Source of the DNA: an uncultured Desulfotomaculum sp. | GTDB lineage: Bacteria; Bacillota; Desulfotomaculia; Desulfotomaculales; Desulfotomaculaceae | Length of the DNA: 51,764 nucleotides | Reading direction: 5' to 3' | NCBI GenBank assembly: GCA_946411205.1 | Contig: CAMKDG010000007.1 | Span: forward strand, 1 to 51,764 | Shown: piece by piece, positions 7,378 to 44,258 of the stretch | Layout: every line of letters starts with the position of its first letter | How positions within the stretch are numbered: the first letter of the stretch is position 1 | Notes under the pieces: generated by a model | Seen by the model: only the letters and a program-made list of their open reading frames with translations | Told to the model about the DNA's origin: nothing | Database searches by the model: none | Program-made: the position numbers and the translations under genes

Positions 7378-7410
7378 AAAACAGGAAGTCGTTGGACATC
7401 CTGTTTTTTT
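7377..7410 (+). terminator. Terminator after pgsA
   Basis: ACAGGA/TCCTGT with an inner GTC/GAC stem and a run of eight T's, directly after the pgsA stop. Confidence 0.85.
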
Positions 7411-7417
7411 TATACTT

Positions 7418-7475
7418 GCAACCTAAAGGTCACTAGCAAACCAGTAGGCAAGTAAGCTAAGTTTTTCCATTTTTT
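7418..7475. repeat. Partial copy of a dispersed intergenic element (copy A)
   Basis: This stretch shares ordered blocks with the element at 34548-34700: AACCTAAAG, then GGTCA, AGCAAAC and GTAGGCAA. The downstream hairpin of the fuller copies is missing, so this looks like a shortened or decayed copy. See the copies at 29491, 34548 and 44054. Confidence 0.45.
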
Positions 7476-15942: not shown

Positions 15943-16301
15943 CCCTAGACCCAGTTTATGCCCGGCGGTTAGGTGTAGATACCGCAAACCTGTTAGTTTC
16001 ACAACCGGACACAGGGGAGCAGGCCCTGGAAATATGTGAGGCACTGGTTCGCAGTGGCGCTCTAGATGTGGTAGTAGTGGATTCAGTGGCTGCGTTGGTT
16101 CCCCGGGCCGAAATTGAGGGGGAAATGGGTGACAGCCATGTGGGATTGCACGCCAGGCTAATGTCTCAGGCTCTGCGTAAGCTCACAGGTGTTGTTAGCA
16201 AGTCTAAAACCATCGTTATTTTCATTAACCAAATCCGGGAAAAAGTAGGAATTGTCTATGGGTCACCGGAAGTTACTACTGGGGGACGTGCTTTAAAGTT
16301 C
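15943..16301 (+). CDS. recA: RecA recombinase, exon 2 (rest of codon 100 to residue 219)
   Basis: The 359 bases code [20 protein letters not shown], the Walker B strand ([18 protein letters not shown]), loop L1 and loop L2 up to TTGGRALKF. They read without a stop in the phase set by exon 1. The exon ends at TTC (16301), followed immediately by GTGTG, a perfect group II 5' end. Read alone the frame would run into the intron and stop at about 16323. Confidence 0.94.
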
Positions 16302-16766
16302 GTGTGCCAGGAAGTTGCAGCATAACCATATTCTGTAACGAGTCCTATATATCATTGCTACTGGAATGTAGATGACTTAGTCCAATGAGTTACCGTCAGC
16401 AACCTTACCCCTAACCGAAAGGAATGGGCGACCACCACATGGTTGAAAAGTCATAACCTACCCTAAGTCATCTAGGGTACAGATGAATGGCGAGACGGAA
16501 ATCTTTCGCATGGTTAAAGCTACACTGCTTGAATCCCAGACAAAGTGCTAAGTAAGGGCTGGGGCTACCTAAGATGTCTAACATTGGTAGCTGAGGAAGA
16601 TGCCTAATTGTTTAGAATTTGCGTTAAGGCTTAATGGACACTTCCTTCACAACCTCTATCAGAGGTAAATGTCGAAAAGGAAACCTAAACGAAAGAAATA
16701 AATTATGATATAAGGATAACCTGGGATTACCTAAGTAGGGTGTCTATGGAAACAAAAATACATCAA

Positions 16767-16780
16767 TAAACATATGTTCG
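16767..16780 (-). promoter_or_regulatory. LexA-box-like sequence inside intron 2
   Basis: Read on the minus strand it is CGAACATATGTTTA, identical over 14 bases to the recA operator at 12722-12735. It lies about 170 bases upstream of the intron protein start. No obvious promoter was placed next to it, and it may instead be part of the folded intron RNA. Confidence 0.35.
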
Positions 16781-16951
16781 ATGTTTGGTGAAACTTACCC
16801 ATAGATAACATGTAACCTGAAATGGTTGATATGAAAATGCCCTATATGGTAACGGAGTCCCCGTAGTAGTCCGAGGTAGCTAATAACTACCACATGGCAA
16901 AGGGGGACAGGTTGTGAATCTAAAACAAAAGAAAGGTTATGGTGCGAGACC

Positions 16952-18988: not shown

Positions 18989-19137
18989 AAAAGCAGAATC
19001 ATCCAATGAATTGAGACTGAAAGTATCTAAGTAACAACTGGAGAGCCGTATGATTGGAAACTTTCAAGTACGGTTCGGTGGCGAGTGTTTGAAAACCTAC
19101 TACAGCAATGTAGAAAGGCGTTGGGCACTTAGCCAAC

Positions 19138-29005: not shown

Positions 29006-29032
29006 ATACCGCCTAGAGCGGTGTTTTTATTT
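29006..29032 (+). terminator. Terminator after the coiled-coil gene
   Basis: ACCGC/GCGGT stem with a 5-base loop, then GTTTTTATTTT. Confidence 0.7.
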
Positions 29033-29071
29033 TCAAGACAATGTTATAATATTGAACCGGGGCGATGTTTT

Positions 29072-29485
29072 GTGAGAATTGCAGTGATTGATGGGCAGGG
29101 TGGTGGCATTGGCAAACATTTAGTAGAAAAGCTGCGCAAGGAACTACCCGAGCAGGTAGAGATTCTTGGGCTGGGAACCAATGCCCTAGCCACGACGGCT
29201 ATGCTAAAGGCGGGAGCCAATGAAGGTGCCACAGGGGAAAATGCCATTATTTATAATAGTTCACGGGTAGATTTAATTGTCGGCAGTATCAGTATTATTA
29301 TGCCAAATGCCATGTTAGGCGAATTGACAGTGAAAATGGCGGAGGCTATTGGGGGGAGTCAAGCTCCTAAATATTTGCTGCCGCTAACTCGCAGTAATGT
29401 TCACCTTGTGGGATTACGGGGTGAACCGATGCCTCACCTCATTGATGAATTAGTAAATCGGATTAGAAAAATTTGTGTCCAATAG
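29072..29485 (+). CDS. DUF3842-family protein
   Basis: The 137-aa protein starts IAVIDGQGGGIGKHLVEKLR, a glycine-rich nucleotide-binding-like start, and continues VEILGLGTNALATTAMLKAG and VDLIVGSISIIMPNAMLGE, as in the DUF3842 family of Clostridia. The function is unknown. The start is GTG 29072, where the homologous sequence begins; the frame upstream of it overlaps a terminator. Confidence 0.8.
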   Translation: MRIAVIDGQGGGIGKHLVEKLRKELPEQVEILGLGTNALATTAMLKAGANEGATGENAIIYNSSRVDLIVGSISIIMPNAMLGELTVKMAEAIGGSQAPKYLLPLTRSNVHLVGLRGEPMPHLIDELVNRIRKICVQ

Positions 29486-29490
29486 GATGC

Positions 29491-29622
29491 GCCAAGTCTG
29501 TAGACACGGCGGTACTCGGCAGGCATAAATCTAAAGCCAGGGGCAAGCGCAGGCGGCAGCTTAGTTTGCCCTTATGCATATCATAAAGTTTATACGTTCC
29601 GATATGGTAAAAAACCTAGTTT
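29491..29622. repeat. Dispersed structured intergenic element (copy B)
   Basis: Ordered blocks: GCCAAGTCTGTAGAC (29491-29505), AATCTAAAG (about 29528), then GGGCAAGC pairing with GTTTGCCC (29564-29571), then CATATC (29577-29582) pairing with GATATG (29601-29606) around a loop that contains AAAGTTTATA, then AAAAAACCT. The same blocks in the same order occur in copies C and D with other stem sequences. It fills the gap between two convergent genes. Confidence 0.6.
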
Positions 29623-30140
29623 AGTTCATCCGCTTTTCGCAGAAGAACTAACTCTGGTGAGTCATCTGGTTTTGGGGGATTGTGATGGTTCTTTATTAGT
29701 AAAACCTGCTGCGCTGGCAAGTGTGCCCTTTCAGCCAACACTGCCCCTTTCACAGGGTGGTTAGTATGGTTTTTACAAGCATTCATAAATCGTCCACCCT
29801 TATCCGAATGTAGGATGTTCTGAAACATCTTCGGCGCGAAGGTAGTTAATAGCACAATCAGAACTTTATCTAGGGTAGTAATACAGTTTGCTGGTTTGCC
29901 TATATCATGCAGCAAGGCTGCTTTGATCAGTAATTCTGTATTAATATTTTTTTGGCTGACTGATAGTTCGAGACAAGTTTTGGCGACCCTAACACAATGC
30001 GTTTGTGTTGGTCTGTCCATCATAAAAAACAGAGATTGTTCCTGTTTATTTAAGGATTTTTGCACGAATTCAATTTCCCTCGGGCCGAGTGTATCCATAA
30101 TTGCGTGCCAAAATTGCCTGACTCGTTGCAAAGCAGCCAT
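29616..30140 (-). CDS. HD-domain phosphohydrolase
   Basis: The 174-aa protein has the HD signature HCVRVAKTCLELS...AALLHDIGKP, with further ligand candidates in NHTNHPVKGAVLAE and IKNHHNPPKPDD. Such small HD proteins hydrolyse nucleotides or phosphomonoesters; the substrate is not evident. The ATG follows GGAGG. It is divergent from cobU and convergent with the DUF3842 gene. Its last codons overlap the end of the dispersed element copy B. Confidence 0.85.
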   Translation of the reverse strand: MAALQRVRQFWHAIMDTLGPREIEFVQKSLNKQEQSLFFMMDRPTQTHCVRVAKTCLELSVSQKNINTELLIKAALLHDIGKPANCITTLDKVLIVLLTTFAPKMFQNILHSDKGGRFMNACKNHTNHPVKGAVLAERAHLPAQQVLLIKNHHNPPKPDDSPELVLLRKADELN

Positions 30141-30225
30141 GGTAACCTCCGATATAACCTGGAATTTAACATACTTTATCTATCATAATAGCTTTTGTTT
30201 TATTATGCAATCTAGGAGATAAAAC

Positions 30226-30798
30226 ATGAAAAATGGGAAACTTACCTTGGTGTTAGGGGGTACCCGAAGTGGCAAAAGTAGTTTTGCCGAGAAGCTAGCC
30301 CAAGATCTCGGTGAAAGGGTGCTCTACCTGGCCACAGCCACAGTTCATGACGAAGAGATGGCCGTACGGGTTACCCAACATCAAGAGCGCCGTCCAGCAA
30401 GCTGGTTTACGGTAGAAGAAGCCAAGGAAGTGGCAACTGTCCTAGAAAAGTATTCCGAAGCATATGATGTTATTTTAATAGATTGTTTAACCCTCTGGTT
30501 ATCTAATTTGCTGTTAGATGATAGTAAATATCCTGTCAGCACTTGGCGGGAAAAAGAAGCGTTACTACTGCTAGAGGTAGAAAAACTGGCGAGTATCTGC
30601 CGTGACTTGTCAGCTAGTGTGATCATCGTGAGCAGCGAAGTCGGTTTAGGAATTGTACCTGACACTTCTTTAGGACGTCAATTTCGTGATTTGGCGGGGG
30701 CGGCCAATCAAAAATTTGCGCAATACGCAAATGAGGTATATTTGGTGCTGGCAGGACTTCCCATTGAGTTAAAGGCACTGGCTCTACCGATAGAGTGA
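30226..30798 (+). CDS. cobU: Adenosylcobinamide kinase / adenosylcobinamide-phosphate guanylyltransferase
   Basis: CobU phosphorylates adenosylcobinamide and then attaches GMP, activating it for joining with the lower ligand of cobalamin. The P-loop is VLGGTRSGKSSFAE; LYLATATVHDEEM, the catalytic-histidine region HQERRPASW and the C-terminal SSEVGLGIVPDTSLGRQFRD are characteristic. Length 190 aa is normal. The cobC-like phosphatase gene follows directly, consistent with late cobalamin assembly, but cobS is missing from this spot. Confidence 0.94.
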   Translation: MKNGKLTLVLGGTRSGKSSFAEKLAQDLGERVLYLATATVHDEEMAVRVTQHQERRPASWFTVEEAKEVATVLEKYSEAYDVILIDCLTLWLSNLLLDDSKYPVSTWREKEALLLLEVEKLASICRDLSASVIIVSSEVGLGIVPDTSLGRQFRDLAGAANQKFAQYANEVYLVLAGLPIELKALALPIE

Positions 30799-30812
30799 AA
30801 GGATTGATTGTC

Positions 30813-31427
30813 TTGAAGACGAGGATTTACCTAGTACGTCATGGTGAAACTCTCTGGAATGCCGGGGGTAAATTTCAAGGACATACCGATGTCCCTTTGT
30901 CTGACAACGGCAGACAGCAGGCCAAAGAGTTGTCGGAGCGCCTGCAAGGGTATAAGATAGATGCCTTTTATAGTAGTGATTTGTCCCGGGCCAGGGAGAC
31001 AGCAGAAATTATAGCGGTACCCCATGGTTTGAGTGTAAATTATGTTCCAGAATTACGGGAAATTAATTTTGGTTTATGGGAAGGTCTTACGTATAAAGAA
31101 ATAACGGACTCTTTTGGTGAAATTAGCCGCCTCTGGTGGTCCAGCCCGCTTACTACGGAAATACCTTCCGGAGAAAATCTACAGGCTGTGGTAGAGCGGT
31201 GCAACAAGGCTATGGGGGAAATTGTTAGCCGTCACGCTGGAGAAACTGTGGTCATAGCAGTGCATGGTGGGGTGATCCGGGTAATTGTTGGTAGTGTATT
31301 AGGCATGGATTTGAATCATTTTTGGAAATTACGGATGGATAATGTTTCATTGACCATCTTGGAATACCATGGTCCAGAGAAAGGGATTTTGGAGCTTTAT
31401 AACGATACCTGCCATCTTGGAAAGTGA
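30813..31427 (+). CDS. cobC: Histidine phosphatase, probably alpha-ribazole phosphatase
   Basis: The protein has the phosphoglycerate-mutase-like signature YLVRHGETLWNAGGKFQG with the catalytic histidine, a second arginine in SDLSRARETAEI, ELREINFGLWEG and the final VAVHGGVIRV. Coupling to cobU suggests alpha-ribazole-5'-phosphate phosphatase, which prepares the lower ligand; a general phosphatase is possible. TTG 30813 is chosen as start, where homologous sequence begins and GAAAGGA is suitably spaced; the frame also continues upstream to GTG 30795. Confidence 0.82.
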   Translation: MKTRIYLVRHGETLWNAGGKFQGHTDVPLSDNGRQQAKELSERLQGYKIDAFYSSDLSRARETAEIIAVPHGLSVNYVPELREINFGLWEGLTYKEITDSFGEISRLWWSSPLTTEIPSGENLQAVVERCNKAMGEIVSRHAGETVVIAVHGGVIRVIVGSVLGMDLNHFWKLRMDNVSLTILEYHGPEKGILELYNDTCHLGK

Positions 31428-31505
31428 TAAAATAAAATCAATGGATAAGAGAATTCCTCCCGAGACAGACTAAGTTCAGTAATTCTGTTGGGAGGGAATG
31501 AACAT

Positions 31506-31730
31506 ATGGAAGAGTTTCTCCGGTCTAGGGTACCCTGGAGCACGGAACCAAGTTTAGAAACCAAGGCCAATGAAGTGGGAGTAAACTTTGATTCATTGAT
31601 TGACGGTATCAAGAATAATAGAACGGATCAGGAAATGGCTGAAGAATTTGGTGTCACGGCTAAATGTATTGGCCACTTAAAGGATCATTTTTGGAGTCAT
31701 GGCATCGGTTCTATTATGGGACAAGATTAA
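31506..31730 (+). CDS. Small helix-turn-helix protein
   Basis: The 74-aa product contains a helix-turn-helix-like stretch (NRTDQEMAEEFGVTAKCIGHLKDHF) here cited in part: DQEMAEEFGVT is the recognition-type turn. ATG 31506 follows GGGAGGG with about 10 bases. It is flanked by a terminator downstream and stands alone, so it may be a small DNA-binding regulator. I do not recognise the exact family. Confidence 0.6.
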   Translation: MEEFLRSRVPWSTEPSLETKANEVGVNFDSLIDGIKNNRTDQEMAEEFGVTAKCIGHLKDHFWSHGIGSIMGQD

Positions 31731-31745
31731 AAAATACAACTATGC

Positions 31746-31790
31746 AGACTCCGGGCCGGTTTGGAATCGGCAGGAGTCTTATTTTTCATT
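31746..31790 (+). terminator. Terminator after the small HTH gene
   Basis: AGACTCC and GGAGTCT with an inner CCG/CGG pair, followed by TATTTTT. Confidence 0.7.
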
Positions 31791-31818
31791 TTTAGATGGT
31801 ATGATTGAGGTGTGAATT

Positions 31819-32226
31819 TTGGCAAGGTATCGGATTTTCCCGACAATTTTACTATTGTTACTGGCTATCCCAATTATAGAAGTCTTTATTTTGATTCAGG
31901 TCAGCCGATGGCTTGGTTTTGGGGTGACATTGACAGCATTACTATTTCTTAGTTTATTGGGTTTTTATTTGATTAAGTCCCAGGGATTTGCCATTATTGG
32001 CCAAATCAGGCGGCAAATTTCTAGCGGGCAGGTGCCCACAGCAGCCTTATTAGAGGGTTTAATGATTTTAGCCAGTGGCCTATTGTTGCTGATACCTGGA
32101 TTATTGACAGACTTTATGGGACTGATTCTTTTACTGCCAGCAGTTCGTTTAACACTGAGAAAGAAGCTAACCGGATTGCTGATCAAATTCTTTGTTCCTG
32201 AAAGATTCATCAGAATTAGATGGTGA
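31819..32226 (+). CDS. fxsA: FxsA-family membrane protein
   Basis: The 135-aa protein has four hydrophobic segments and the FxsA pattern: LLLLLAIPIIEVFILIQVSRW, then SLLGFYLIKSQGF and LIPGLLTDFMGLILLLPAVR (quoted in parts). FxsA was named for relieving F-factor exclusion of phage T7; its normal role is unknown. TTG 31819 follows GAGGTGTG. Confidence 0.9.
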   Translation: MARYRIFPTILLLLLAIPIIEVFILIQVSRWLGFGVTLTALLFLSLLGFYLIKSQGFAIIGQIRRQISSGQVPTAALLEGLMILASGLLLLIPGLLTDFMGLILLLPAVRLTLRKKLTGLLIKFFVPERFIRIRW

Positions 32227-32280
32227 GTCTATTCGCAATTTCTTACGACAATTTTCCTAGTAACCCCTACATCACTGTGA

Positions 32281-32286
32281 TATAAT
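32281..32286 (+). promoter_or_regulatory. -10 box of guaB
   Basis: TATAAT preceded by TGTGA lies 45 bases upstream of the guaB start. A matching -35 hexamer is not clear. Confidence 0.45.
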
Positions 32287-32288
32287 AG

Positions 32289-33782
<1,494 letters not shown>

Positions 33783-33820
33783 AAATAAGCCTTAGCCATT
33801 GGCAAAAGGCCATAAGAAAA

Positions 33821-33857
33821 AATATCCCACCCTTGATTTTTGGGTGGGATATTTTTA
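33821..33857. terminator. Bidirectional terminator between guaB and acuA
   Basis: AATATCCCACCC and GGGTGGGATATT form a 12-bp perfect stem with A- and T-runs on both sides, between two convergent genes. Confidence 0.9.
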
Positions 33858-33860
33858 TGT

Positions 33861-34523
33861 TTATATGCCTCGATTTAGAAAAGTAAGTTCTTCAAATCTC
33901 TGAAGGGCCTCTTTCGGTACATTTTTACCCATCCTTACCATCATTACATTGGCCGGGTGCTCTGTAATGTCCGGGTCATCTGTGGCTCTTTTTTGCAATC
34001 CCACGGATGAGAATAACCGAGTTAACATCTTTTGATAGCTCACCATGCTTAAACCACTGTTCTTTAAATCCCAGTGCCAACAAAATTCAATGGTTATGAT
34101 GATGTGATTCTCTACAAAGCCATGATTGAAGGCTTCTGCTAATAAGTAATGGGCTACTTTATCCTTTCGCCATTCCGGACTAATTTCTACTGCCCCTAAC
34201 TCTACAATATAAGGGTGCTTACTCCAACGGCTATACTCGTCCGGGTAATGGAAGGTTACATAGCCAATAATCACATCTTGAAATCTGGCAATAAAGACTT
34301 TTCCTTCTGAAAGGTTGGAAATCAACATCAATGCCTCTTGCTGTCGGGCCGGTGGACGGAAATTTTTTAATCCTGCATCCATGGATAGGCGGGCAATGTA
34401 ATCGCTGCTACAAGGCCCTTCTAAATGAATAATCCCCCGAGGTGTTCTGAGTATACCATTTTCGATTTTAACAACCATGGATTCATTTTCATTATTTGAC
34501 TCAGTATCAAAGGCAATACTCAT
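33861..34523 (-). CDS. acuA: AcuA-type protein lysine acetyltransferase
   Basis: The 220-aa GNAT protein follows Bacillus AcuA closely from residue 24 on: LRTPRGIIHLEGP, FRPPARQQEALMLI, GKVFIARFQDVIIGYVTFHYPD, ELGAVEISPEWR, IEFCWHWDLKNSGL and EHPANVMMVRMGK are all recognisable. AcuA acetylates the active-site lysine of acetyl-CoA synthetase and switches it off. No acuBC genes are adjacent. A possible substrate, an acyl-CoA synthetase with PKTVSGKIRR, is coded at 47802-49433. ATG 34523 follows a G-rich ribosome site. Confidence 0.88.
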   Translation of the reverse strand: MSIAFDTESNNENESMVVKIENGILRTPRGIIHLEGPCSSDYIARLSMDAGLKNFRPPARQQEALMLISNLSEGKVFIARFQDVIIGYVTFHYPDEYSRWSKHPYIVELGAVEISPEWRKDKVAHYLLAEAFNHGFVENHIIITIEFCWHWDLKNSGLSMVSYQKMLTRLFSSVGLQKRATDDPDITEHPANVMMVRMGKNVPKEALQRFEELTFLNRGI

Positions 34524-34547
34524 CGCTACACCCCCTTAGAAAATGAT

Positions 34548-34700
34548 GCTAAGCCTTTAGACGTACCCTACAGGATATAACCTAAAGTCATAACCTTACA
34601 GGTCAGAAGCAAACAGGTAGGCAAACCGGTGGAAATCTAGTTTGCCTTTGATGCCTATCGAAAAGTTTATAATTTTTGCTGTGATAGGTCAAGAAAAAAC
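34548..34700. repeat. Dispersed structured intergenic element (copy C)
   Basis: The fullest copy: GCTAAGCCTTTAGACG (34548-34563), AACCTAAAG (about 34579), GGTCA and AGCAAAC, then AGGCAAAC (34619-34626) pairing with GTTTGCCT (34640-34647), then CCTATC (34654-34659) pairing with GATAGG (34683-34688) around a loop with AAAGTTTATA (34662-34671), then AAAAAACCT. Compared with copy B the paired arms differ but still pair. Confidence 0.6.
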
Positions 34701-35022
34701 CTTTTGGACTTAATTTTATACCGTTCAAGGCACAGATTTAACCTTTCAAGTTTATTATATGTTACTTGTGCCTAAATTTACAAGCATTAACTATTTTAAA
34801 TTTTATATTGACAAAGGACCCGCTTTTTTAAATTGATTCGACAGAGAATACATTTTAAAACCTCTAAAATTTGAGCACAATGTAAGCTTGCAGCGAATTA
34901 TGCAGGAAAAATTTTACAAATAAAGGAAGGGAACTAAAATAATAAAGGGAATATAACAAGAGTGAAAGACATATAATTCCATTTTTGCCGTTTATTATAG
35001 TACAGGAAGGTGATGGAGGATA
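34701..35022. other. AT-rich intergenic region upstream of the winged-helix gene
   Basis: No coding frame is seen. It holds an inverted repeat AGGCACA (34728-34734)/TGTGCCT (34767-34773), a TTGACA at about 34808 without a good -10 partner at normal spacing, and the ribosome site GATGGAGG just before 35023. It may be a long regulatory region for the downstream gene. Confidence 0.4.
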
Positions 35023-36402
35023 GTGACCACCAAACTTAACTCATTAACGGATGTTTTAAAGAAAACACTTTTCTTTTTTGATGGTTTATCCATTGAAGAA
35101 ATAGCTCCTTATGTACAAAAAAAGATGATGCAAGATTATTCCAACGATAAGGTAATGGAAAGAATTCGACTGTGTTTGAAGCAACATGCCTGCTTTTATG
35201 CTGATCAAACTGGTAAATTTCGTTTAAAACTACAGGGGTATCCGGAGAATGATCATTTTTATCAAATGCTGATCAAGCGACAACAACCGATTGCTTTACG
35301 CCAAGTGGTCAGTAACCCGGTGGCTCGAAAAAAAAGAATGCGTAAACTGGCAGAAGAAGCAGCATTAATGCCGGACGGCCGCTTTGTGCAGTTAGATAAC
35401 GGCAATTGGGGATTAACCGAGTGGAATGTAGAGGCGGAACAATATTCATTAAAGCATTTAGTTATTAAGGCGTTAAAGCTGCACCAGGGAGGGCTATCCT
35501 CTCAACAATTGTTTGAATGTGTAAACGAGTGGCGTGTCACTAGTAAACCCGCTGTAATGCAAGTGCTGTGTAAATTTCCTTATTTTGAAAAAATTAGCAG
35601 TGATGTTTGGACTTATAACCCTCAGGCCCATAGCCTTTACGATGATTTAGTAAAGAGGTATTTAAATATCTTAAATAAACAAAAAAAGCAGTGGCACAAT
35701 GAAAGAACAAGGTTGCTGCAAAAAAATGAGAAATTTATCTATCAACTTAATGAATTAAGCTCTGCACAACGGGAGGCCGCTGCTGCCTTAGCCCAAAGAG
35801 CTTCGGTAGTTGAACAATATAATCATTTGGCTACCCAGTTATCAGAAAAGGATCTCCTATTAAATCTGCGCAAAAAAGAAATCTTGCGCTATCGTCATGA
35901 ATTAGAAAGAACGGAAAATAAAGCTAACAGCATCCTCTATCAATGTCGGTTATGGGTTCGTAAGGCCAGAGAAGAAGAACAGGCGAAGGCTCAAATCAAA
36001 GATGTTTCTGAGAAAAACCAATCCAGTTTAGAGGGGCTATTTACCAAACTTCAGCAATATAAAGAAAGGGATCGAGAAAATAAAGCACGCTTAGCTGAAT
36101 TAAAAGAACGTTACAGTACAAGGGTTGCTGAACTACAAACTGAGATCGTGGAACTAAAACAGAAAATAGAAAGATATCAGCAAAATGCCCAATTCGAAGA
36201 GCGCAAACTGCAACAGGATATTAATCTGCTAAGTAACGACCTAAAAGAAGCTCTGGAGGGTGGAGAGGATCTGCAAAAGACACTTCGCTTAACGCAGCAG
36301 GAGTTAAGCAGAGTGCAAGCAGAAAAGATGGAATTAGAAAGCAGACTTAAAAGACCCTTGGTGAATATTGCCAATAAATTTAGCCGTTTTTTTGGCTTAT
36401 AA
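35023..36402 (+). CDS. Winged-helix plus coiled-coil protein
   Basis: 459 aa, GTG start behind GATGGAGG. The first 200 residues look like repeated winged-helix units of the RNA-polymerase-delta/HARE type: IEEIAPYVQKKMMQDYS...CFYADQTGKFRL and HLVIKALKLHQGGLSSQQLFE...ISSDVWTYN, both with the F/Y..W/G ending of that fold. Residues 210-445 are one long coiled coil, and the C-terminus is basic-aromatic (NIANKFSRFFGL), possibly membrane-touching. It could be a DNA-associated structural or regulatory protein. Exact family not recognised. Confidence 0.6.
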   Translation: MTTKLNSLTDVLKKTLFFFDGLSIEEIAPYVQKKMMQDYSNDKVMERIRLCLKQHACFYADQTGKFRLKLQGYPENDHFYQMLIKRQQPIALRQVVSNPVARKKRMRKLAEEAALMPDGRFVQLDNGNWGLTEWNVEAEQYSLKHLVIKALKLHQGGLSSQQLFECVNEWRVTSKPAVMQVLCKFPYFEKISSDVWTYNPQAHSLYDDLVKRYLNILNKQKKQWHNERTRLLQKNEKFIYQLNELSSAQREAAAALAQRASVVEQYNHLATQLSEKDLLLNLRKKEILRYRHELERTENKANSILYQCRLWVRKAREEEQAKAQIKDVSEKNQSSLEGLFTKLQQYKERDRENKARLAELKERYSTRVAELQTEIVELKQKIERYQQNAQFEERKLQQDINLLSNDLKEALEGGEDLQKTLRLTQQELSRVQAEKMELESRLKRPLVNIANKFSRFFGL

Positions 36403-36416
36403 TGTACGCAAAGGAA

Positions 36417-36441
36417 AGGGGTGCACTTCAGATGCACCCCT
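36417..36441. terminator. Hairpin after the winged-helix/coiled-coil gene
   Basis: AGGGGTGCA and TGCACCCCT pair perfectly around a 7-base loop, 15 bases after the stop. The T-rich tail is weak. Confidence 0.6.
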
Positions 36442-36493
36442 AGATATTTGTTTGAGGCAGCACCTTGAATGGTAGTTACGGAACTGCACCAGG

Positions 36494-36558
36494 GTCATTT
36501 TTTTAAACAAAAACATCTTGCTTTCAAAAAGCGAGATGTTTTTGTTTAAAAAAATGAC
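36494..36558. repeat. Very long intergenic hairpin
   Basis: Two 28-base arms (36494-36521 and 36531-36558) starting GTCATTTTTTTAAACAAAAA pair over their full length with a single G-T position, around a 9-base loop. A- and T-runs on both arms could stop transcription from either side. It marks the left edge of the alkylation-repair cluster. Confidence 0.7.
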
Positions 36559-36655
36559 TCCCCTAACCGTAACCGTAAAAAACCACGTCCGAAAATGGCC
36601 AGATGTTTTTGGCCAACGTGATATAATAAACCAATTCAGGCAAGGGGGCGAAAGG

Positions 36656-38115
36656 ATGACGGATAACAAAAGTGCTCTGTATGCAGCGTTCAAGGCAAAG
36701 GATGCACGCTTTGACGGGCGTTTCTTTGTGGGTATATCGTCCACAGGCATCTATTGCCGCCCGGTCTGCCGGGCAAAGCAACCCAAGAGTGAAAATTGCA
36801 CCTTTTACACCACCGCGGCGGAAGCCGAACAAGCGGGATACCGCCCTTGCCTTTTATGCAGACCAGAGCTTGCCCCTGGCACTTCAATCACCGACGCTAC
36901 CGCAACGTTGGCCCGCAGAGCGGCAAGATTGCTGGAAGAAAACTGCGGCAGCGGACAGAGTTTAGAGGAACTGGCCGGAAGACTTGGCTGTACCGCCCGA
37001 CATCTGCGGCGTGTTTTTGCAGATGAATACCATGTCTCGCCGGTGCATACCTGCAAACCTGCAGATTGCTCCTGGCTAAAAACCTGCTTACAGATACAGA
37101 CCTGCCCGTTCTTGAGGTCGCAATGGCTGCAGGTTTCAACAGCTTGCGCCGCTTCAATGATCTTTTCAAAAAGCAGTACAATCTTTCGCCAACGGCTTTA
37201 CGGAAACGGGCTACGGAAGGGAAAAAACATACTAGCAATATTACGTTGGCATTAGGCTACCGACCGCCCTATCATTGGGAAGAAATGTTGAACTTTCTCG
37301 CCGGGCGTGCAATCACCGGCATAGAGGCAGTAAAAAACGGCGAATACATGCGTACCGTGCATTTGGAAAGCACGGAGGGAAAGCAGCTATACGGTTGGGT
37401 ACGGGTAGGACACAGACCTAAAAAGAATGTCTTAGCTGTCACCGTGAGCGAAACCCTGTTACCTGTATTGCCACAAGTATTAGCCCGGATACGGCACCTA
37501 TTTGACGTATCCTGCGACCCGCACGCGGTGTATGAAACACTCCGGGTAATGAACGACATCCGCCCTGGTCTTTGCGTTTTGGGAACCCGTGTGCCGGGGT
37601 GCTTTAACGCCTTTGAAATGGTGGTACGGGCGGTGCTTGGACAGCAAATTAGCGTGAAAGCAGCAAGCACATTAGCAGCAAGGATTGTTGAGACTTACGG
37701 TACACCGATTCAAACCGGGCTTGCAGGCTTGACCCATATTTTTCCCTTACCTAAAGAGATAGTAGCTTTGGACGGAGCTATAGAAAATCATTTTGGCGTG
37801 CTAGGCGTTACTGCTGCGCGGTCAAATACTATTTACGAACTGGCACGAGTATTCGTGCAGGGGGAAATTACTTTTGACCTTTGCACACAGCCGGAGGAAG
37901 CAATGAAAAAGCTGATGGCTATTCGAGGTATCGGAAGCTGGACAGCACAGTATATTGCTATGCGTGCTATGGAATGGCCAGACGCTTTTCTTGAAACAGA
38001 CGCAGGCGTAAAAAAAGCATTACAGCCCCACACAGCAAAAGAATTATTGAAAATGGCAGAAGCCTGGCGACCGTGGCGCAGTTATGCCACCGTCAACCTT
38101 TGGCATACGCTATAA
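36656..38115 (+). pseudogene. Ada-like/AlkA fusion (methyl-DNA sensor + 3-methyladenine glycosylase), frameshifted
   Basis: Read in two frames this is one protein of about 487 aa. Part 1 (from ATG 36656) has the Ada zinc domain with four cysteines (GIYCRPVCRAK, PCLLCRPEL), which senses methyl-phosphotriesters, and the start of an AraC HTH (LAGRLGCTARHLRRVFADEY). Part 2, in another frame, resumes with LLLAKNLLTDTDLPVLEVAM and the second HTH, then an AlkA glycosylase domain with the helix-hairpin-helix AIRGIGSWTAQYIAM and catalytic Asp in FLETDAG. One base seems missing near 37046-37048 (GTGCATACC where a Gln-Tyr pair is expected). It is either a recent inactivation or a sequencing error. Bases look G+C-richer than the surroundings. 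Confidence 0.88.
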
Positions 38116-38125
38116 GGAGGTAAGC

Positions 38126-38665
38126 ATGTATTATTCAACAACATATCCATCACTTGTAGGAACCATTACACTGGCCTGTGACGGCAAGCATCTTGTCGGC
38201 TTATGGCTGGAAGGGCAAAAATATCATGGAGACACCATCCCCGAAGCTATGCTGGAGAATCACGATTTACCAATATTTGACGCTGCCAAAAAATGGTTGG
38301 ACAGATACTTTGCGGGTGGAAAGCCTGATATTTCTGAAGTGCCGTTGGCTCCCCTTGGCAGTAACTTTCGTCAAGGGGTATGGGATATTTTGTGTGAAAT
38401 ACCCTACGGCAAGGTTATCACCTATGGTGACATTGCTAAAAAAATGGCGGTCAAGATGAACAAGAAAAGCATGTCAAGTCAGGCTGTGGGCGGAGCCGTT
38501 GGACATAACCCCATATCGATTATGATCCCCTGCCACCGGGTTGTAGGTTCAAATGGCAGTTTAACAGGTTATGCCGGGGGCATTCATACAAAAGTAAAGT
38601 TGCTTGAATTGGAGGGCGTCGATATGTCGCGTCTGTTTGTACCCACAAAAGGTACAGCCCTTTGA
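38126..38665 (+). CDS. ogt: Methylated-DNA-[protein]-cysteine S-methyltransferase
   Basis: Removes methyl groups from O6-methylguanine by transferring them to its own cysteine in a suicide reaction. The active site IPCHRVVGSNG is intact, preceded by FRQGVWDILCEIPYGKVITYGDIA and followed by LTGYAGGIHTKVKLLELEG. 179 aa, normal for Ogt. ATG 38126 follows AAGGAGG, 10 bases after the ada-alkA stop, so the two form an operon for alkylation damage. Confidence 0.94.
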   Translation: MYYSTTYPSLVGTITLACDGKHLVGLWLEGQKYHGDTIPEAMLENHDLPIFDAAKKWLDRYFAGGKPDISEVPLAPLGSNFRQGVWDILCEIPYGKVITYGDIAKKMAVKMNKKSMSSQAVGGAVGHNPISIMIPCHRVVGSNGSLTGYAGGIHTKVKLLELEGVDMSRLFVPTKGTAL

Positions 38666-38732
38666 TGTTTTAAAAATGATTCTAAAAACTGACTGATATA
38701 CAATCCATTGTGTGAAGGAAGGCAGGATAACT

Positions 38733-39086
38733 ATGATATTGGTATTATTTGAGGTAACTATAAAAAAAGATTGTATGGACGGCTACCTCACTATAGCAGC
38801 TAAACTAAAAGATAATTTGATAAAGGCAAAAGGATTCATACGTTCCGAACGATTTTCTAGCCTTGTAAACAAAAGAAAACTGCTTAGTTTGTCTGTTTGG
38901 GAGGATGAAGAAACCGTAACGGAGTGGCGCAATCAACACGAACACCGCAAGAGCCAATTTCAAGGACGTGAATCTGTGTTTGAATGCTATACAATTACAG
39001 TTGCATCCTTATTAAGGTCTTATACGGATACGGAACGGCAGAAAGCTCCCCAAGACTCCAACAACTTTTTTGAAAATATTGAATAA
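38733..39086 (+). CDS. Antibiotic-biosynthesis-monooxygenase (ABM) domain protein
   Basis: The 117-aa protein looks like a dimeric alpha/beta-barrel ABM protein: ILVLFEVTIKKDCMDGYL, then LIKAKGFIRSERFSSL and LLSLSVWEDEETVTEWRNQHEHR. Related proteins oxidise aromatic or haem-like substrates or act as small binding proteins; no catalytic assignment is possible here. ATG 38733 follows GAAGGAAGG. Confidence 0.75.
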   Translation: MILVLFEVTIKKDCMDGYLTIAAKLKDNLIKAKGFIRSERFSSLVNKRKLLSLSVWEDEETVTEWRNQHEHRKSQFQGRESVFECYTITVASLLRSYTDTERQKAPQDSNNFFENIE

Positions 39087-39252
39087 GCTTTTTATCTTCG
39101 TTCTCCTGGGTGCCAGTAGGAAATGAAAACACTGTACCGGGTTATTACAGAGTGCCTGGCATTTTTGCGTAGAGATAGGGAAATGGACAACTACCGGGAG
39201 TTCAAGCGTAATCCTAAAGTATGTGGTACCTGTTTATGACAGCAGTATTTAG

Positions 39253-39291
39253 AAAACCGGATGTTTCAGCAAATGAAACATCCGGTTTTTT
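39253..39291 (-). terminator. Terminator of the Na/Pi cotransporter gene
   Basis: AAAACCGGATGTTTC and GAAACATCCGGTTTT pair perfectly (15 bp), with T-runs in both directions, just after the minus-strand stop. Confidence 0.9.
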
Positions 39292-39309
39292 GATACTCTG
39301 CCCCCTCCG

Positions 39310-40998
39310 TTAGAGCGGGAGTCTTTGCGTTTCTATAATTTGGGGAATCTCTCGATTACCAGGAAACGCTGTGTCTTCGGGGTGATGAGAAAGTGGGGCG
39401 CAAAGTAACACAATGTTTTTTAGATGTTCACTAATTTGCAAATAGCAATTCAACAAATCAATATGAATAAAGCTGGTTTTCTCGCTCTCTGTACCGCCAC
39501 TTCTCATTCGTGCGATATGACTCATTTTTAACCGAAAGTGCAGATCGGATAATTCTTCTTGCAAATTTAGTGCTTTTCTCCCTAAGGCAACATTATTGGT
39601 AGCGAAGGAGGTATTTACCATAAGCAGTATTTCCAGCGTTTTATCATGAATAAGCTTAATTTCTTGTTGGCCAGAGGGTGAAAAATCTAAATTACGAATA
39701 TTCATATTTTCTGCTTTACCCAAGATATTTCTTTCAATTACATCGCCAATGAATTCGTATTCTCTGACGATGTTTACCAACGCCATCGCCCGATTAAATT
39801 CATCCCGCGTCAAAGGATGTCTTAATAGCTGGGTTAAATAGTTATTGGTAGCGAGGGATAAAAGGTCTACTTTCTCTTCTCTCTCTAAAATTCGATCAAC
39901 TTTATCCTGGTTATAGTAATCAAAGAGAGAGTAGACCGGTTTAACCATCTCTGTTACCAGATCAGAAATTTGTATAGTTTCTTTAAGGGACATACCAATG
40001 GCCAGTTCTGGACTGTTTAGCAGATGTTCATCGAGATACTTGGGACTAAAAACATTATCGGCTTTTTTATCTTTAATCAACGTTTCCAGGAAGGTAGCAA
40101 AATAATGAATAAAAGGCAGGTACAAAAATGCGATGGTTACGTTAAAGAAAGTATGGGTGTTGGCCACCTGAAAGCCAGGTGAAGTTGCCAATGTCTTCAT
40201 TAAACTGGCCACTTGATTCACGAAGGGGAGAAATAACAAGACACCCGTTGTTTTAAACAAAAAATGTGCCCAGGCTACTCTTTGCGATTCCCTCGATGAT
40301 CCGATACTGGAGAGCAACGGGGTAAAAGTAGTTCCGATATTCGCCCCCAGCAACATAAAAATAGCCTGGTCCAGCGTAATCATGTGCTGCATGGTTAATA
40401 GCATAATAATACCAATGGTGGCGGCACTGCTGGAAACCAGGAAGGTAAAAATAGCGGCCACAGCCATTTCCAAGGCCGGGTAAGCACTAAGTTTTGTTAG
40501 TATAAGACCTACGGAAGGGTTAGATTTTAAAGGGGCCATGGTATCGGACATGATTTTTAAGCCCAGGAACAGCAGTCCAAAGCCCATGATGGCTAAGGAA
40601 AGCCTTTTTTTACGATGAGTTTTGCTCAATAATAACGCAAAAGCAGCAATAAAAATCACGGGTAAGGATATTTCTGTGGCCTTTAAGGCTATGAGTTGTG
40701 CCGTTATCGTGCTGCCGATGTCCGAACCTAAAAGAACAGCCAGGGTTTCCCGTAAAGTGATAATAGACGCACTGGTTAAGCCAATTAGTAAGACCGTGGT
40801 TGCTGTACTGCTTTGAAACAATAGCGTAAACAGCATACCCAGCCCCAGACCTACGAAGCGGTTTTTCGTCAGTATAATTAAAATTTCCCTAAGTTTTTTT
40901 CCTGCTACCTTCTGTAAGTTGTCTTTCATCAAAGACATGCCATATAGCAACAAGCCTACTCCACCGATCATGCTGAAAGTTGCCTGATACCAATTCAA
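39310..40998 (-). CDS. Na/Pi cotransporter family protein with PhoU domain
   Basis: 562 aa. The N-terminal 300 residues are a membrane domain with the two inverted Na/Pi repeats and their serine-rich motifs (LFQSSTATTVLLIGLTSASI and VSSSAATIGIIMLL). Residues 330-550 are helical and PhoU-like (GMSLKETIQISDLVTEMV, REYEFIGDVIERNILGKAEN). The family takes up phosphate with sodium in bacteria, with PhoU-like control. It starts at TTG 40998 behind GGGGGTGAT. It is divergent from the NUDIX gene. Confidence 0.92.
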   Translation of the reverse strand: MNWYQATFSMIGGVGLLLYGMSLMKDNLQKVAGKKLREILIILTKNRFVGLGLGMLFTLLFQSSTATTVLLIGLTSASIITLRETLAVLLGSDIGSTITAQLIALKATEISLPVIFIAAFALLLSKTHRKKRLSLAIMGFGLLFLGLKIMSDTMAPLKSNPSVGLILTKLSAYPALEMAVAAIFTFLVSSSAATIGIIMLLTMQHMITLDQAIFMLLGANIGTTFTPLLSSIGSSRESQRVAWAHFLFKTTGVLLFLPFVNQVASLMKTLATSPGFQVANTHTFFNVTIAFLYLPFIHYFATFLETLIKDKKADNVFSPKYLDEHLLNSPELAIGMSLKETIQISDLVTEMVKPVYSLFDYYNQDKVDRILEREEKVDLLSLATNNYLTQLLRHPLTRDEFNRAMALVNIVREYEFIGDVIERNILGKAENMNIRNLDFSPSGQQEIKLIHDKTLEILLMVNTSFATNNVALGRKALNLQEELSDLHFRLKMSHIARMRSGGTESEKTSFIHIDLLNCYLQISEHLKNIVLLCAPLSHHPEDTAFPGNREIPQIIETQRLPL

Positions 40999-41153
40999 AA
41001 TATCACCCCCATAATAGCTCTATTTAAACTATAGAATAGGGGATTGTGACTTTTGGTGCAAGTATTTTTTTAGCACATTATTTAGATTCTGCTCATGAAA
41101 AGAAGCTTTGTTTGGGAAATCTAATTTTAGTTGGATTTAAATACGAAGTATCG

Positions 41154-41182
41154 TTGACAGCAGGATTTATGAGTTTTAAAAA
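41154..41182 (+). promoter_or_regulatory. Promoter of the NUDIX hydrolase gene
   Basis: TTGACA (41154-41159), a 17-base spacer and TAAAAA (41177-41182), a weaker -10. Confidence 0.5.
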
Positions 41183-41226
41183 GGAATCAATGATAAATGC
41201 TAAAATATGGTACGAGGAGTGGAACA

Positions 41227-41763
41227 ATGCAAAGTTTAAAAGAAACGGCCTTGTCTTCCCGCAGGGTCTATGAGGGAAAAATACTAAATTTACGAGTGGA
41301 TCAGGTTTTATTACCGAATGGTAAGGAAAGCAGCAGAGAAGTGGTAGAGTTTTCCCAAGCGGTGGCCATCGTGGCTGTAACCGATGAAGGGAAGGTATTA
41401 TTGGTGTCACAGTACCGTTATCCAGTAGGAGAAGTATTAAAGGAAATACCCGCGGGAAAAATGGACCCCCGGGAAACGCCCGAGGTGTGCGCGCTTAGAG
41501 AATTAAAAGAAGAAACCGGCTATACAGCGGCTTCTTTAGTGAAGCTAATGGAGTTTTATACTACGCCTGGTTTTACCAATGAATTGATGCATGTTTTCCT
41601 GGCTCAAAACTTAACGGCCGGAGAGCAAAGCCCCGACGAGGATGAATTTGTTCAAGTGGAGATAGTCTCTTTGCAGGAAGCCATCGAGATGACTTTTAAC
41701 GGCAAAATTCGAGATGGCAAATCCATGGCCGGGTTATTGGCGGCCAGTTACCATCTGAAATAG
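41227..41763 (+). CDS. nudF: NUDIX hydrolase, ADP-ribose pyrophosphatase type
   Basis: The 178-aa protein has the NUDIX box GKMDPRETPEVCALRELKEETGY (key residues G...EECALRELKEETG-type, quoted in part as ALRELKEETGY) and the upstream pattern VLLVSQYRYPVGEVLKEIPAG typical of ADP-ribose pyrophosphatases. It hydrolyses ADP-ribose to AMP and ribose phosphate. ATG 41227 follows GAGGAG; the frame extends upstream without a ribosome site. Confidence 0.92.
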   Translation: MQSLKETALSSRRVYEGKILNLRVDQVLLPNGKESSREVVEFSQAVAIVAVTDEGKVLLVSQYRYPVGEVLKEIPAGKMDPRETPEVCALRELKEETGYTAASLVKLMEFYTTPGFTNELMHVFLAQNLTAGEQSPDEDEFVQVEIVSLQEAIEMTFNGKIRDGKSMAGLLAASYHLK

Positions 41764-41791
41764 AAATAAACCGATGAAATATGGCATAAGT

Positions 41792-41838
41792 AAACCCCCG
41801 GAACGGCTGGATAAGACCAGTGGTTTCGGGGGTTTTTA
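41792..41838. terminator. Terminator between nudF and minC
   Basis: AAACCCCCG (41792-41800) and CGGGGGTTT (41827-41835) enclose a smaller CTGG/CCAG hairpin; T's follow. The genes converge here. Confidence 0.8.
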
Positions 41839-42534
41839 TTACTCGGAACTTTTACCGGCCGGGCGGCGACTGTTATAGGTTTCCACAATAATTTGACTAT
41901 CGGCAGAAAGATAAGCGATTTCAGGATAAGGAGCCATTTCTAGGGCGTCTGCTGGTGCACAGGCAATGGAAGAACCGATTCTCAGTTGGGCTGGGGAAAG
42001 GCGATGGGCCACCACCCGAGCATATCTGTTACCATCGGCACCGGCGTGTACTACACCACGACAGTTACCCATAACCAGTACATTACCATAGGCGACCACT
42101 TCAGCACCGGGGTGAATATCTCCCAAAACAACTACATGGCCGGGATAATGCACTTTCTGACCAGAACGAAGACTTCTTTTTACCAACAGAGTATTCGTCT
42201 GGTTGTTTGCTTCTTCCCCGGCGACAATTGCTTTTGATTCAGGAGCCGAGGTTACTTCAGGGCCCGAGGTAGAGGTAGTAGGATTGCTGATGATCTTCAT
42301 CCGAATGTCCGGTTGATGAATTAAGCCGTATTCTATACATATTTGTTCCAGAGCCTGTTTTTGTTCATTCTCCTCAGGTTCTTGGTAGAAGGCAAACTCA
42401 GCACCTTTGAAAAAACCCCTGGCGGAGTCCATTTTTTTATATAAGTTCTGCTTAATATCTTCAAAATCTCTTTCCTTGTCCAGGAGAATTAAGAGTCCGT
42501 GCCGTGTTCCTTTAATACTGACAGCTTCACTCAT
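41839..42534 (-). CDS. minC: Septum site-determining protein MinC
   Basis: MinC blocks FtsZ assembly away from mid-cell. The N-terminal domain (AVSIKGTRHGLLILLD, ARGFFKGAEFAFY) and the C-terminal beta-helix (GQKVHYPGHVVVLGDIHPGA, VYAYGNVLVMG-like VVAYGNVLVMGNCRG, HAGADGNRYARVVAHRLSPAQLRIG in parts) are both clear. 231 aa. The start is ATG 42534 behind GGAAGGTG; the longer frame begins at TTG 42549 inside the ribosome site. No minD or mreBCD lies next to it, so it may be a second, unlinked copy. Confidence 0.88.
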   Translation of the reverse strand: MSEAVSIKGTRHGLLILLDKERDFEDIKQNLYKKMDSARGFFKGAEFAFYQEPEENEQKQALEQICIEYGLIHQPDIRMKIISNPTTSTSGPEVTSAPESKAIVAGEEANNQTNTLLVKRSLRSGQKVHYPGHVVVLGDIHPGAEVVAYGNVLVMGNCRGVVHAGADGNRYARVVAHRLSPAQLRIGSSIACAPADALEMAPYPEIAYLSADSQIIVETYNSRRPAGKSSE

Positions 42535-42615
42535 GCGAACACCTTCCAATTTTTACATGGTAAATACTATTTCGACCGCAGGTGACCAAATCCTGCTGAC
42601 TAACTCGAAAATTTT

Positions 42616-44025
42616 CTACTCCTGCGTTTTTTCTTGTCTATTGCCATCGGAATACCTCAGAAAACGGCCATTAGGCCAGTAAAAATACAACAGTAAGGGA
42701 CACCAGGCCACGAGGAAAGTAAGCAAATGCATGGCTAAATGAGTGTGTCCGAGCAACATTTGGGGCAAGCGAGACAATTCTGCTGTCAGAGACAACAACA
42801 AAGAGACCGTAAATAAGGGACTTTGCCAACTCAGCAACGGAACGGCGGCCAGCATCCAAGCTAGATACCAAGGTTGAAACCACTTATTGGCGATTACTAA
42901 AAAGGCCAGCCAAATAAGTACGGTATTGGTTAAGAGGAGCGGCAGATCCTGCTGTGACTTCTTTCGCCATAACCAGAGTAAAAGAATGAAATACATGAGT
43001 GAGAATACTAGGGTTAAAACATGGGAGATAATTTTAAAGATAATAACTTTTTCGGCGTTTGGCCACAGTTCCTGGGCTGCCGTAAATAGGATGTAATGCA
43101 GAGATTTAATGGAATAAAAATTTTGTTGTTTTACGACACCTTGCAGTGTGGTGACACCCTCCCAATAGGGTAACCACCAGATAAACACAAGCACCAGAGA
43201 AAGTAGGCAGCCGATCAATAAACTGCTAAACCAACGACGTTTTAACAGCCAGCATAGAAAAAGTGGTGCTAAAAGCACCGGGGTGTATTTTACCAATACC
43301 GCCAGGGTTAAACAGGGCAGAGAGAATAGACCACGTCTAACGGTAAGTGAATAAAAGGCAAGGATAATAAAGGTAAGCAGTAAGGCATCGTTATGGGCAT
43401 GACCGGGTAATTCGAATAGTAATAATGGATTCCAGCCATAGACCAACATGGCCTGAGAAGATTTGATACCGAAATTGCGTGCGGTAAATCCGATCAATAC
43501 AGTATTGATCAAGTGTACTAGACCTGCAAATAACTTAAAAATAAGTACCGCCCAGCCAAAATGATGGTTTGTCAAGGCCACCAACCATTCTGCTACCTTT
43601 GTCCAAATAGGGCCATAAACATTGGTTAAAAAGCCCCAATTGGTGGTACTGAGAAAGGGATCTAAACGCCAAGCTTTAATTTGATGAGCGGTGGTTAGAT
43701 AGGGGTTAGCTTGGTATTGCTCTGCTATTTGACCGGTGGCCAGGTAGTAATATACGTCCTCACAGGCGAAGGGGAATAGGAGTACCAGCAGTAGGGTTAA
43801 TGCTGTGGTCCAGCCCAACACCTCAAGATTGCTGGCAGTAACGGCTCCGTCTCGCAGGGCTTGCCAATAAAGGAAAAAGGTCATCACAAAAACCAAGGCT
43901 AAGAGAAGGGGCATGAAGGCACCACTTAGGGACATACCCTTTTGCCAAGCTGGATAACTGGCAAGCAGCAGGACAAGCCAGGTGATCATTGACAATAAAC
44001 CGGGAACCAAAAGTTTTTGTTTCAT
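42616..44025 (-). CDS. GT-C type polyprenol-phosphate-mannose-dependent mannosyltransferase-like protein
   Basis: 469 aa with about 11-12 membrane segments. After the second or third helix comes the acidic motif FACEDVYYYLATGQIAEQYQ and the long first loop (NPYLTTAHQIKAW, NVYGPIWTKVAEWL), which is the pattern of GT-C enzymes such as the actinobacterial MptB group (family GT87-like). GHAHNDALLLTFIILAFY is another conserved stretch. Such enzymes add a mannose or other hexose from a lipid-linked donor outside the membrane. The adjacent divergent operon codes sugar-activating enzymes. ATG 44025 follows AAGGTGA. Confidence 0.75.
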   Translation of the reverse strand: MKQKLLVPGLLSMITWLVLLLASYPAWQKGMSLSGAFMPLLLALVFVMTFFLYWQALRDGAVTASNLEVLGWTTALTLLLVLLFPFACEDVYYYLATGQIAEQYQANPYLTTAHQIKAWRLDPFLSTTNWGFLTNVYGPIWTKVAEWLVALTNHHFGWAVLIFKLFAGLVHLINTVLIGFTARNFGIKSSQAMLVYGWNPLLLFELPGHAHNDALLLTFIILAFYSLTVRRGLFSLPCLTLAVLVKYTPVLLAPLFLCWLLKRRWFSSLLIGCLLSLVLVFIWWLPYWEGVTTLQGVVKQQNFYSIKSLHYILFTAAQELWPNAEKVIIFKIISHVLTLVFSLMYFILLLWLWRKKSQQDLPLLLTNTVLIWLAFLVIANKWFQPWYLAWMLAAVPLLSWQSPLFTVSLLLSLTAELSRLPQMLLGHTHLAMHLLTFLVAWCPLLLYFYWPNGRFLRYSDGNRQEKTQE

Positions 44026-44053
44026 ACAGAGTCACCTTAGAAAAACTTGCTTA

Positions 44054-44146
44054 CGCCAAGCCTTTAGGCGCTGCAGAAGCTTAATTTGCCCTTCTGCATA
44101 GCAGAAAACTTTATACCTTCTGCTATGCAGAAAAAGTTATTTTACC
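44054..44146. repeat. Dispersed structured intergenic element (copy D)
   Basis: GCCAAGCCTTTAGGCGC (44054-44070, with GCCT/AGGC able to pair), AATTTGCCC (44083-44091), then CTGCATAGCAG (44094-44104) pairing perfectly with CTGCTATGCAG (44120-44130) around a loop with AAACTTTATA, then AAAAAGTT. The middle part with AACCTAAAG and GGCAAAC seen in copies B and C is missing here. Confidence 0.6.
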
Positions 44147-44258
44147 CAACTATTACTTTAGTATACCCGGTATAGTTCTATTCAATGTTGGTAAAACTCG
44201 GTATTGGTTAGAAAAACTTGGCTTGTCTGAATAATAATCACGAAGGAGAGTAGCCATC

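What the first reader, a model, noticed from the sequence alone, without database searches (positions are those of the whole stretch)
29491..44146. Family of dispersed, structured intergenic elements with compensatory changes
Three gaps (29491-29622, 34548-34700, 44054-44146) share blocks in the same order: GCYAAGYCTKTAGRC, (in two copies) AAYCTAAAG and a GGCAARC/GTTTGCC stem, then TTTGCC and a hairpin whose loop carries AAASTTTATA, then AAAAAA. The hairpin arms differ but still pair: CATATC/GATATG, CCTATC/GATAGG, CTGCATAGCAG/CTGCTATGCAG. The middle stem also shows a paired change (GGGCAAGC/GTTTGCCC against AGGCAAAC/GTTTGCCT). A partial copy lies at 7418-7475. Conserved loops with covarying stems point to selection on RNA or single-stranded DNA structure, not simple duplication. 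I do not recognise a known riboswitch or REP family. Each copy sits between genes, with no single associated gene type, so a mobile structured element or a family of small RNAs is possible.
Basis: partly seen in the sequence, partly recalled or inferred. Interest (0 to 1): 0.8.

Follow-up and report, generated by a model that had tools for sequence, protein, structure and literature searches.

The report
Mobile hairpin element targeting gene terminators
A small folded DNA element, present in about eighty copies in this sulfate-reducing bacterium, spreads by inserting itself beside the hairpins that mark the ends of genes, and the enzyme that moves it is not known.

Summary
The three gaps are copies of a ~90-100 nt two-hairpin element with 82 non-overlapping places in this genome at E<=0.01 and 0 to 118 matches in eight congeners. 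It is mobile DNA rather than a family of resident RNAs. Six filled/empty sites between this genome and Desulforamulus aeronauticus show precise insertion with no constant target duplication. The 3' end abuts an A-tract (77 of 84 copies with at least 4 A in +2..+7), usually leading into a hairpin: 58 of 84 downstream flanks fold to -8 kcal/mol or lower, against 9 of 84 upstream flanks and 205 of 600 control YAAAAA sites. So it inserts beside intrinsic-terminator-like hairpins; other species mostly agree (23 of 27). Covariation between copies is strong, yet stems of orthologous resident copies change at the flank rate and keep pairing no more than neutral (11 of 30; 33% expected). Y1, Y2 and IS110 transposases and group II RTs do not follow copy number. 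Mover unknown; single-strand HUH-like transposition in trans is my inference.

The parts
29463..29607 (+). Copy 1, long form: TTAG start, core 29491-29505, inserted modules, hairpin 2 (CATATC/GATATG)
   Evidence: filled at the same site in G001
29608..29657 (-). Target side of copy 1: A-tract, then a hairpin of -17.4 kcal/mol read on the minus strand (terminator side of the gene 29616-30140)
34536..34689 (+). Copy 2, long form: TTAG start, core 34548-34562, modules, hairpin 2 (CCTATC/GATAGG); downstream fold weak (-6.1)
   Evidence: filled in G001
44037..44126 (+). Copy 3, compact form: TTAG start, core 44055-44069, hairpin 2 (CTGCATAGCAG/CTGCTATGCAG); empty in G001; downstream fold weak (-5.0)
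7415..7468 (-). Degenerate minus-strand piece: left arm and modules, 3' side against the T-tract of a terminator-like hairpin (7371-7416 folds to -16.8)
   Evidence: not found by R1 at E<=1
30786..30787 (-). Empty site: G001 carries an 81-nt insert here, an element in the reverse orientation, inside the last codons of the CobU gene 30226-30798
44208..44225 (+). Solitary 18-nt left-arm match (TTAGAAAAACTTGGCTTG), also at the matching place in G001

Best explanation
A non-autonomous mobile element of about 90-100 nt (longer with extra modules). It begins TTAG, folds into hairpin 1 (GGCTTGCGCC AA GTC TTTA GAC ... GGCGGAAGCC) and ends at the foot of hairpin 2. It inserts in a fixed orientation directly 5' of a YAAAAA tract, most often one that leads into a terminator-like hairpin; on the other strand it lies right after hairpin + TTTTR. 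Shown: copy number, patchy distribution, insertion polymorphism with precise ends, no constant target duplication, target rule, covariation between copies, neutral decay of resident copies. Inferred: it moves as a folded single strand, cut and joined by a trans-acting enzyme that reads hairpins (HUH/Y1-like logic), and the T-tract and hairpin of terminators are chosen as an exposed target. The enzyme is not identified; I hold the mobile, terminator-seeking part at about 0.85 and the HUH-like part at about 0.4.
For: Six filled/empty pairs: 4 of 22 distinct G000 sites with both flanks held are empty in G001, 2 more sites are filled only in G001. 77 of 84 copies have at least 4 A in +2..+7. Downstream fold of -8 or lower: 58 of 84, upstream 9 of 84, control YAAAAA sites 205 of 600; perfect stems of 7 bp or more 30 of 84, 0 of 84, 145 of 1300. 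In other species and genera 23 of 27 downstream against 9 of 27 upstream. The hairpin is also in the empty sites B and F, and all 21 G007 downstream flanks differ. 7 of 21 G007 copies identical. Covariation 0 of 500 shuffles on five measures. Neutral stems in orthologous pairs.
Against: No mover found: Y1 genes are in all 9 genomes including zero-copy G004, and none of 29 Y1 loci has a significant element nearby (two chance-level matches, E 1.3 and 4.3). No autonomous parent in the sequence held. A third of copies have no strong downstream fold, including window copies 2 and 3. BLAST can draw imperfect overlaps of 6-7 nt at joins A, B and C, so a short irregular duplication is not formally excluded. 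Gene direction is only a weak signal: 51 of 83 downstream neighbours face the element.
Confidence: 0.75

Rival explanations
1. Retrotransposition in trans by a group II intron reverse transcriptase: a SINE-like passenger that shares the group IIC habit of inserting after terminators without duplication.
For: Same kind of target (passage in PMC3898094), flush joins, group II introns in this window.
Against: No group II domain found in element copies. RT genes do not follow copy number: G007 (81 copies) has one weak match and none over the cut-off, G003 (16 copies) has 14, zero-copy G004 has 2 strong ones.
Confidence: 0.08
2. A classical MITE cut and pasted by a DDE transposase with a short target duplication.
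For: Size, copy number and modularity fit; join B can be read as a TTA duplication and A-C as imperfect 6-7 nt overlaps.
Against: The two ends are not inverted repeats of each other (TTAGAAAAAC against GATATGC or GAAAGTG); no duplication of constant length in six joins; one-sided target preference.
Confidence: 0.1
3. A family of structured RNAs or spare terminators selected at each site.
For: Strong covariation; hairpin 1 of the T-type is flanked by A and T tracts and looks like a bidirectional terminator.
Against: Neutral stems and pairing in orthologous pairs (the wider set of 17 pairs gives stems 77/1070, flanks 137/1986, changed pairs 26 kept and 36 broken); presence/absence between close species; no Rfam match.
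Confidence: 0.07

Closest known systems
REP / REPIN elements moved by RAYT (TnpA-REP, Y1)
   Same: Short intergenic hairpins in high copy with a constant 5' tetranucleotide (TTAG in most copies here); subfamilies with alternative complementary stems (PMC3733652 and PMC6006769, passages)
   Different: TTAG instead of GTAG/CGTC; two unlike hairpins in one unit; no element at Y1 genes; defined A-tract/hairpin target
IS200/IS605-type insertion sequences and their non-autonomous derivatives
   Same: Folded ends instead of inverted repeats, target sequence next to one end only (PMC6006769 passages); no target duplication (recalled for the family)
   Different: No transposase in the element, no parent with matching ends found; hairpin 2 starts at the very end
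Group IIC introns
   Same: Recognise a DNA hairpin such as a terminator (PMC3898094 passage); no duplication
   Different: About 100 nt, no ribozyme or RT
BOX, RUP and SPRITE of Streptococcus pneumoniae
   Same: Short, modular or terminator-like, clustered and nested, near gene ends (PMC3049150 passages)
   Different: BOX and RUP have terminal inverted repeats and duplicate the target; SPRITE empty sites could not be examined there; sequence relation not tested here

Membership tests
MITE (BOX/RUP kind) | Terminal inverted repeats | tested here: not met
   Ends TTAGAAAAAC and GATATGC/GAAAGTG are unlike
MITE (BOX/RUP kind) | Target-site duplication | tested here: not met
   Six joins, no constant duplication; irregular overlaps up to 3 nt by eye, 6-7 nt imperfect in BLAST for A-C
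REP/REPIN | GTAG or CGTC tag at the hairpin foot | tested here: not met
   TTAG in 93-99% per position of 84 copies; AAAG or TTAA in other lineages
REP/REPIN | Copies flank a RAYT/Y1 gene | tested here: not met
   0 significant matches at 29 Y1 loci of nine genomes
IS200/IS605 derivative | Folded ends, target at one end, no duplication | tested here: met
IS200/IS605 derivative | Ends shared with a Y1 element | tested here: not met
   No match at Y1 loci and no widely spaced pair of ends in the sequence held; whole genomes were not scanned for spaced ends
Group IIC intron | Insertion beside terminator hairpins | tested here: met
Group IIC intron | Ribozyme domains and RT | tested here: not met
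   Too short; Rfam finds group II only in the introns at 13162-19137
Conserved cis or trans RNA | Selection on structure at the resident site | tested here: not met
   10 compact pairs; small sample
Conserved cis or trans RNA | Discrete transcript | not testable with these tools
   No expression data

The most novel reading that the evidence does not exclude
A second, intron-independent way of targeting intrinsic terminators in bacteria: a folded element moved in trans by an enzyme outside the Y1, Y2, IS110 and group II RT families, which reads an A/T tract at the foot of a hairpin. The element's own left end (TTAGAAAAAC + hairpin 1) has the same form as its target, so it can insert in front of itself and build arrays, as the tandem copies at L173 and L049 suggest.
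Probability: 0.35. Interest if true: 0.85.

Novelty: new variant of a known kind. Interest (0 to 1): 0.62.

Why it matters
Miniature mobile elements are common, but I found no description of a non-intron element that homes on intrinsic terminators without target duplication (open-access searches). Terminators are a safe harbour, which would explain how a genome carries so many copies. The case also shows how covariation can mislead: structure kept between copies but neutral at each site marks mobility, not a resident RNA. Two close genomes with polymorphic sites make the mechanism testable.

Tried and rejected
Known RNA family: no gathering-score match to the element in the window (which found only the three group II hits); permissive scans gave one CRISPR-repeat match at E 2.1 and four sRNA matches at E 0.2-0.99, far below their cut-offs. 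Y1 as partner; three of the Y1 loci read (L134, L137, L138) lie beside a different repeat (GGGGACGGTTCT). Group II RT, IS110 (none in copy-rich G000 and G001) and Y2 (only G000): no relation to copy number. Parent element: 25 lone left and 16 lone right pieces in the sequence held, no pair 200-4000 nt apart. Viral contigs: no exact match to one 22-letter pattern. Replication-strand targeting: in 43 of the 81 G007 matches orientation follows the two halves of the chromosome (23 - and 5 + before 2.0 Mb, 3 - and 12 + after, p 1.6e-4); but by my hand count over the 21 fetched G007 copies 12 of 13 conform where the downstream gene faces the element and 4 of 8 where it does not, so gene and terminator direction explains it better. 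The class search returned a set of 113 genomes with the same tally as the order search and added nothing. A second left-out candidate (a 91-nt insert opposite L021) is not this element.

Rows dropped: searches use 84 of the 94 matches (dropped: one duplicate locus, a cut piece, a tandem piece, and seven weaker, long or overlapping matches); orthologous copies of G000 and G001 both count, so one search gives counts per genome; 42 rows are 41 loci (L018 repeats L053); 23 rows, 22 sites, had both flanks. One search used 17 of the 18 filled sites (L023 left out); one search used 10 of them, those without module indels. One search folded 600 of 1300 control sites. first used 11 of 17 other-species genus loci plus 3 + 7 from other genera (19 of 21 downstream, 6 of 21 upstream); one search added the six left out (4 of 6 downstream, 3 of 6 upstream). 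One search used 77 compact copies of the 84.
Full report
What is there. The window (G000, contig C7) holds three copies of a dispersed element, at 29463-29607, 34536-34689 and 44037-44126, and a degenerate minus-strand piece near 7415-7468. The motif GCYAAGYCTKTAGRC occurs 29 times in the 3.62-Mb genome, 0 times read backwards. A covariance model from 15 compact copies gives 87 matches at E<=0.01, 82 of them non-overlapping.

Anatomy. The compact form runs TTAG-AAAAACTTGGCTTGC-GCCAAGTCTTTAGAC-GCCGGCGGAAGCC (hairpin 1) and then a second hairpin of one of two main types, GCATATCGGAAAG..CTTTCCGATATGC or ACTTTCGTCAATAGAAATTTTATACTTTCTGAAAGT. Long copies carry extra 14-18-nt palindromic modules such as CCCTATAGGG or ACCTTTAGGT beside the core. 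Orthologous copies differ by one 18-nt module in L053 and in L058.

Structure. In 91 distinct copies 94.9% of pair cells are standard pairs, 12 of 16 pairs have changes on both sides, and none of 500 shuffles reaches any of the five measures; sliding the partners drops pairing to 22-45%. That alignment is fitted to the model; the plain MAFFT alignment of 15 copies already has 5 of 16 pairs with both sides changed. Hairpin-templated repair could cause part of this without selection; I did not separate the two.

Mobility. Of 22 distinct G000 sites with both flanks in the G001 sequence held, 18 are filled and 4 empty in G001; two more sites are filled only in G001, one of them at window 30786. 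In the six joins the insert runs from TTAG (CTAG in one) to the foot of hairpin 2, with up to about 3 nt of ambiguity by eye; BLAST can draw imperfect overlaps of 6-7 nt at three of them, of no constant sequence. In G007, 7 of 21 fetched copies are identical and lie at different places, and 19 of 21 have their nearest relative in G007: a recent burst.

Target. After the element comes C, T or A (39, 37, 21%), then A at 85, 94, 74, 80, 80 and 73% (84 copies). Folds of -8 kcal/mol or lower: 58 of 84 downstream, 9 of 84 upstream, 205 of 600 sampled intergenic YAAAAA sites; perfect stems of at least 7 bp: 30 of 84, 0 of 84, 145 of 1300, Fisher p 1.5e-8 for downstream against control. Per genome, downstream 15 of 26, 25 of 37 and 18 of 21; upstream 2, 7 and 0. 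The hairpins are not part of the element: 21 of 21 G007 downstream flanks differ, and the hairpin is in the empty sites B and F. Window copy 1 has a strong hairpin (-17.4), copies 2 and 3 weak ones (-6.1, -5.0). In other species and genera 23 of 27 copies have the downstream fold and 9 of 27 an upstream one. Downstream genes face the element in 51 of 83 cases, and 7 of 84 copies overlap a mechanical ORF.

Not a resident RNA. In 10 compact orthologous pairs stems differ at 38 of 592 sites, flanks at 215 of 2981, loops at 50 of 379; 11 of 30 one-sided stem changes and 1 of 4 two-sided ones keep pairing, with 33% expected for single neutral changes. The wider set of 17 pairs gives stems 77 of 1070, flanks 137 of 1986, loops 85 of 643, and of 62 changed pairs 26 kept (6 by changes on both sides) and 36 broken. 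The sample is small and uses predicted folds, but there is no sign of selection at the resident sites.

Distribution. Matches at E<=0.01 in the nine genomes of the genus: 87, 118, 4, 16, 0, 27, 1, 81, 7 (G000 to G008; overlapping opposite-strand matches included). In the order, 10 of 113 genomes match at E<=1e-4: seven of this genus and three of another family (stricter filters). The MAG Soudan_17 has seven loci with the exact motif and the same junction.

Mechanism. Precise joins without constant duplication, folded unlike ends and a one-sided A/T-tract target next to a hairpin argue for a single-strand cut-and-join reaction of HUH type or, by target habit, a group II-like route. Group IIC introns are known to recognise terminator hairpins (passage). 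Group II RTs, Y1, Y2 and IS110 genes do not follow copy number. I commit to non-autonomous single-strand transposition in trans by an unidentified enzyme; the enzyme class is held at less than even odds.

Literature. I saw nine search listings and passages found by term in PMC3733652, PMC6006769, PMC3898094, PMC10969869 and PMC3049150; I read no paper whole. None of what I saw describes this element; the library holds only open-licence papers.

Noticed in passing
window 13162-15942 and 16952-19137: Two group II introns with RT ORFs (626 and 678 aa) lie close together in the window.
   Followed up: partly
window 29463-29485: Copy 1 supplies the last codons and the stop codon of the DUF3842 ORF 29021-29485.
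   Followed up: no
L053 and L058 (G000) against L099 (G001): 18-nt palindromic modules are present in one species and absent in the other at the same resident copy, as if gained or lost as units.
   Followed up: partly
L134, L137, L138: RAYT-like Y1 genes sit beside another repeat containing GGGGACGGTTCT, probably their own REP family.
   Followed up: no
L173 and L049: Tandem copies: the upstream copy ends directly before CTAGAAAAAC of the next, as if the element had used another element's left end as target.
   Followed up: no
G003: 14 matches to group II RT in one complete genome, several nearly identical.
   Followed up: no
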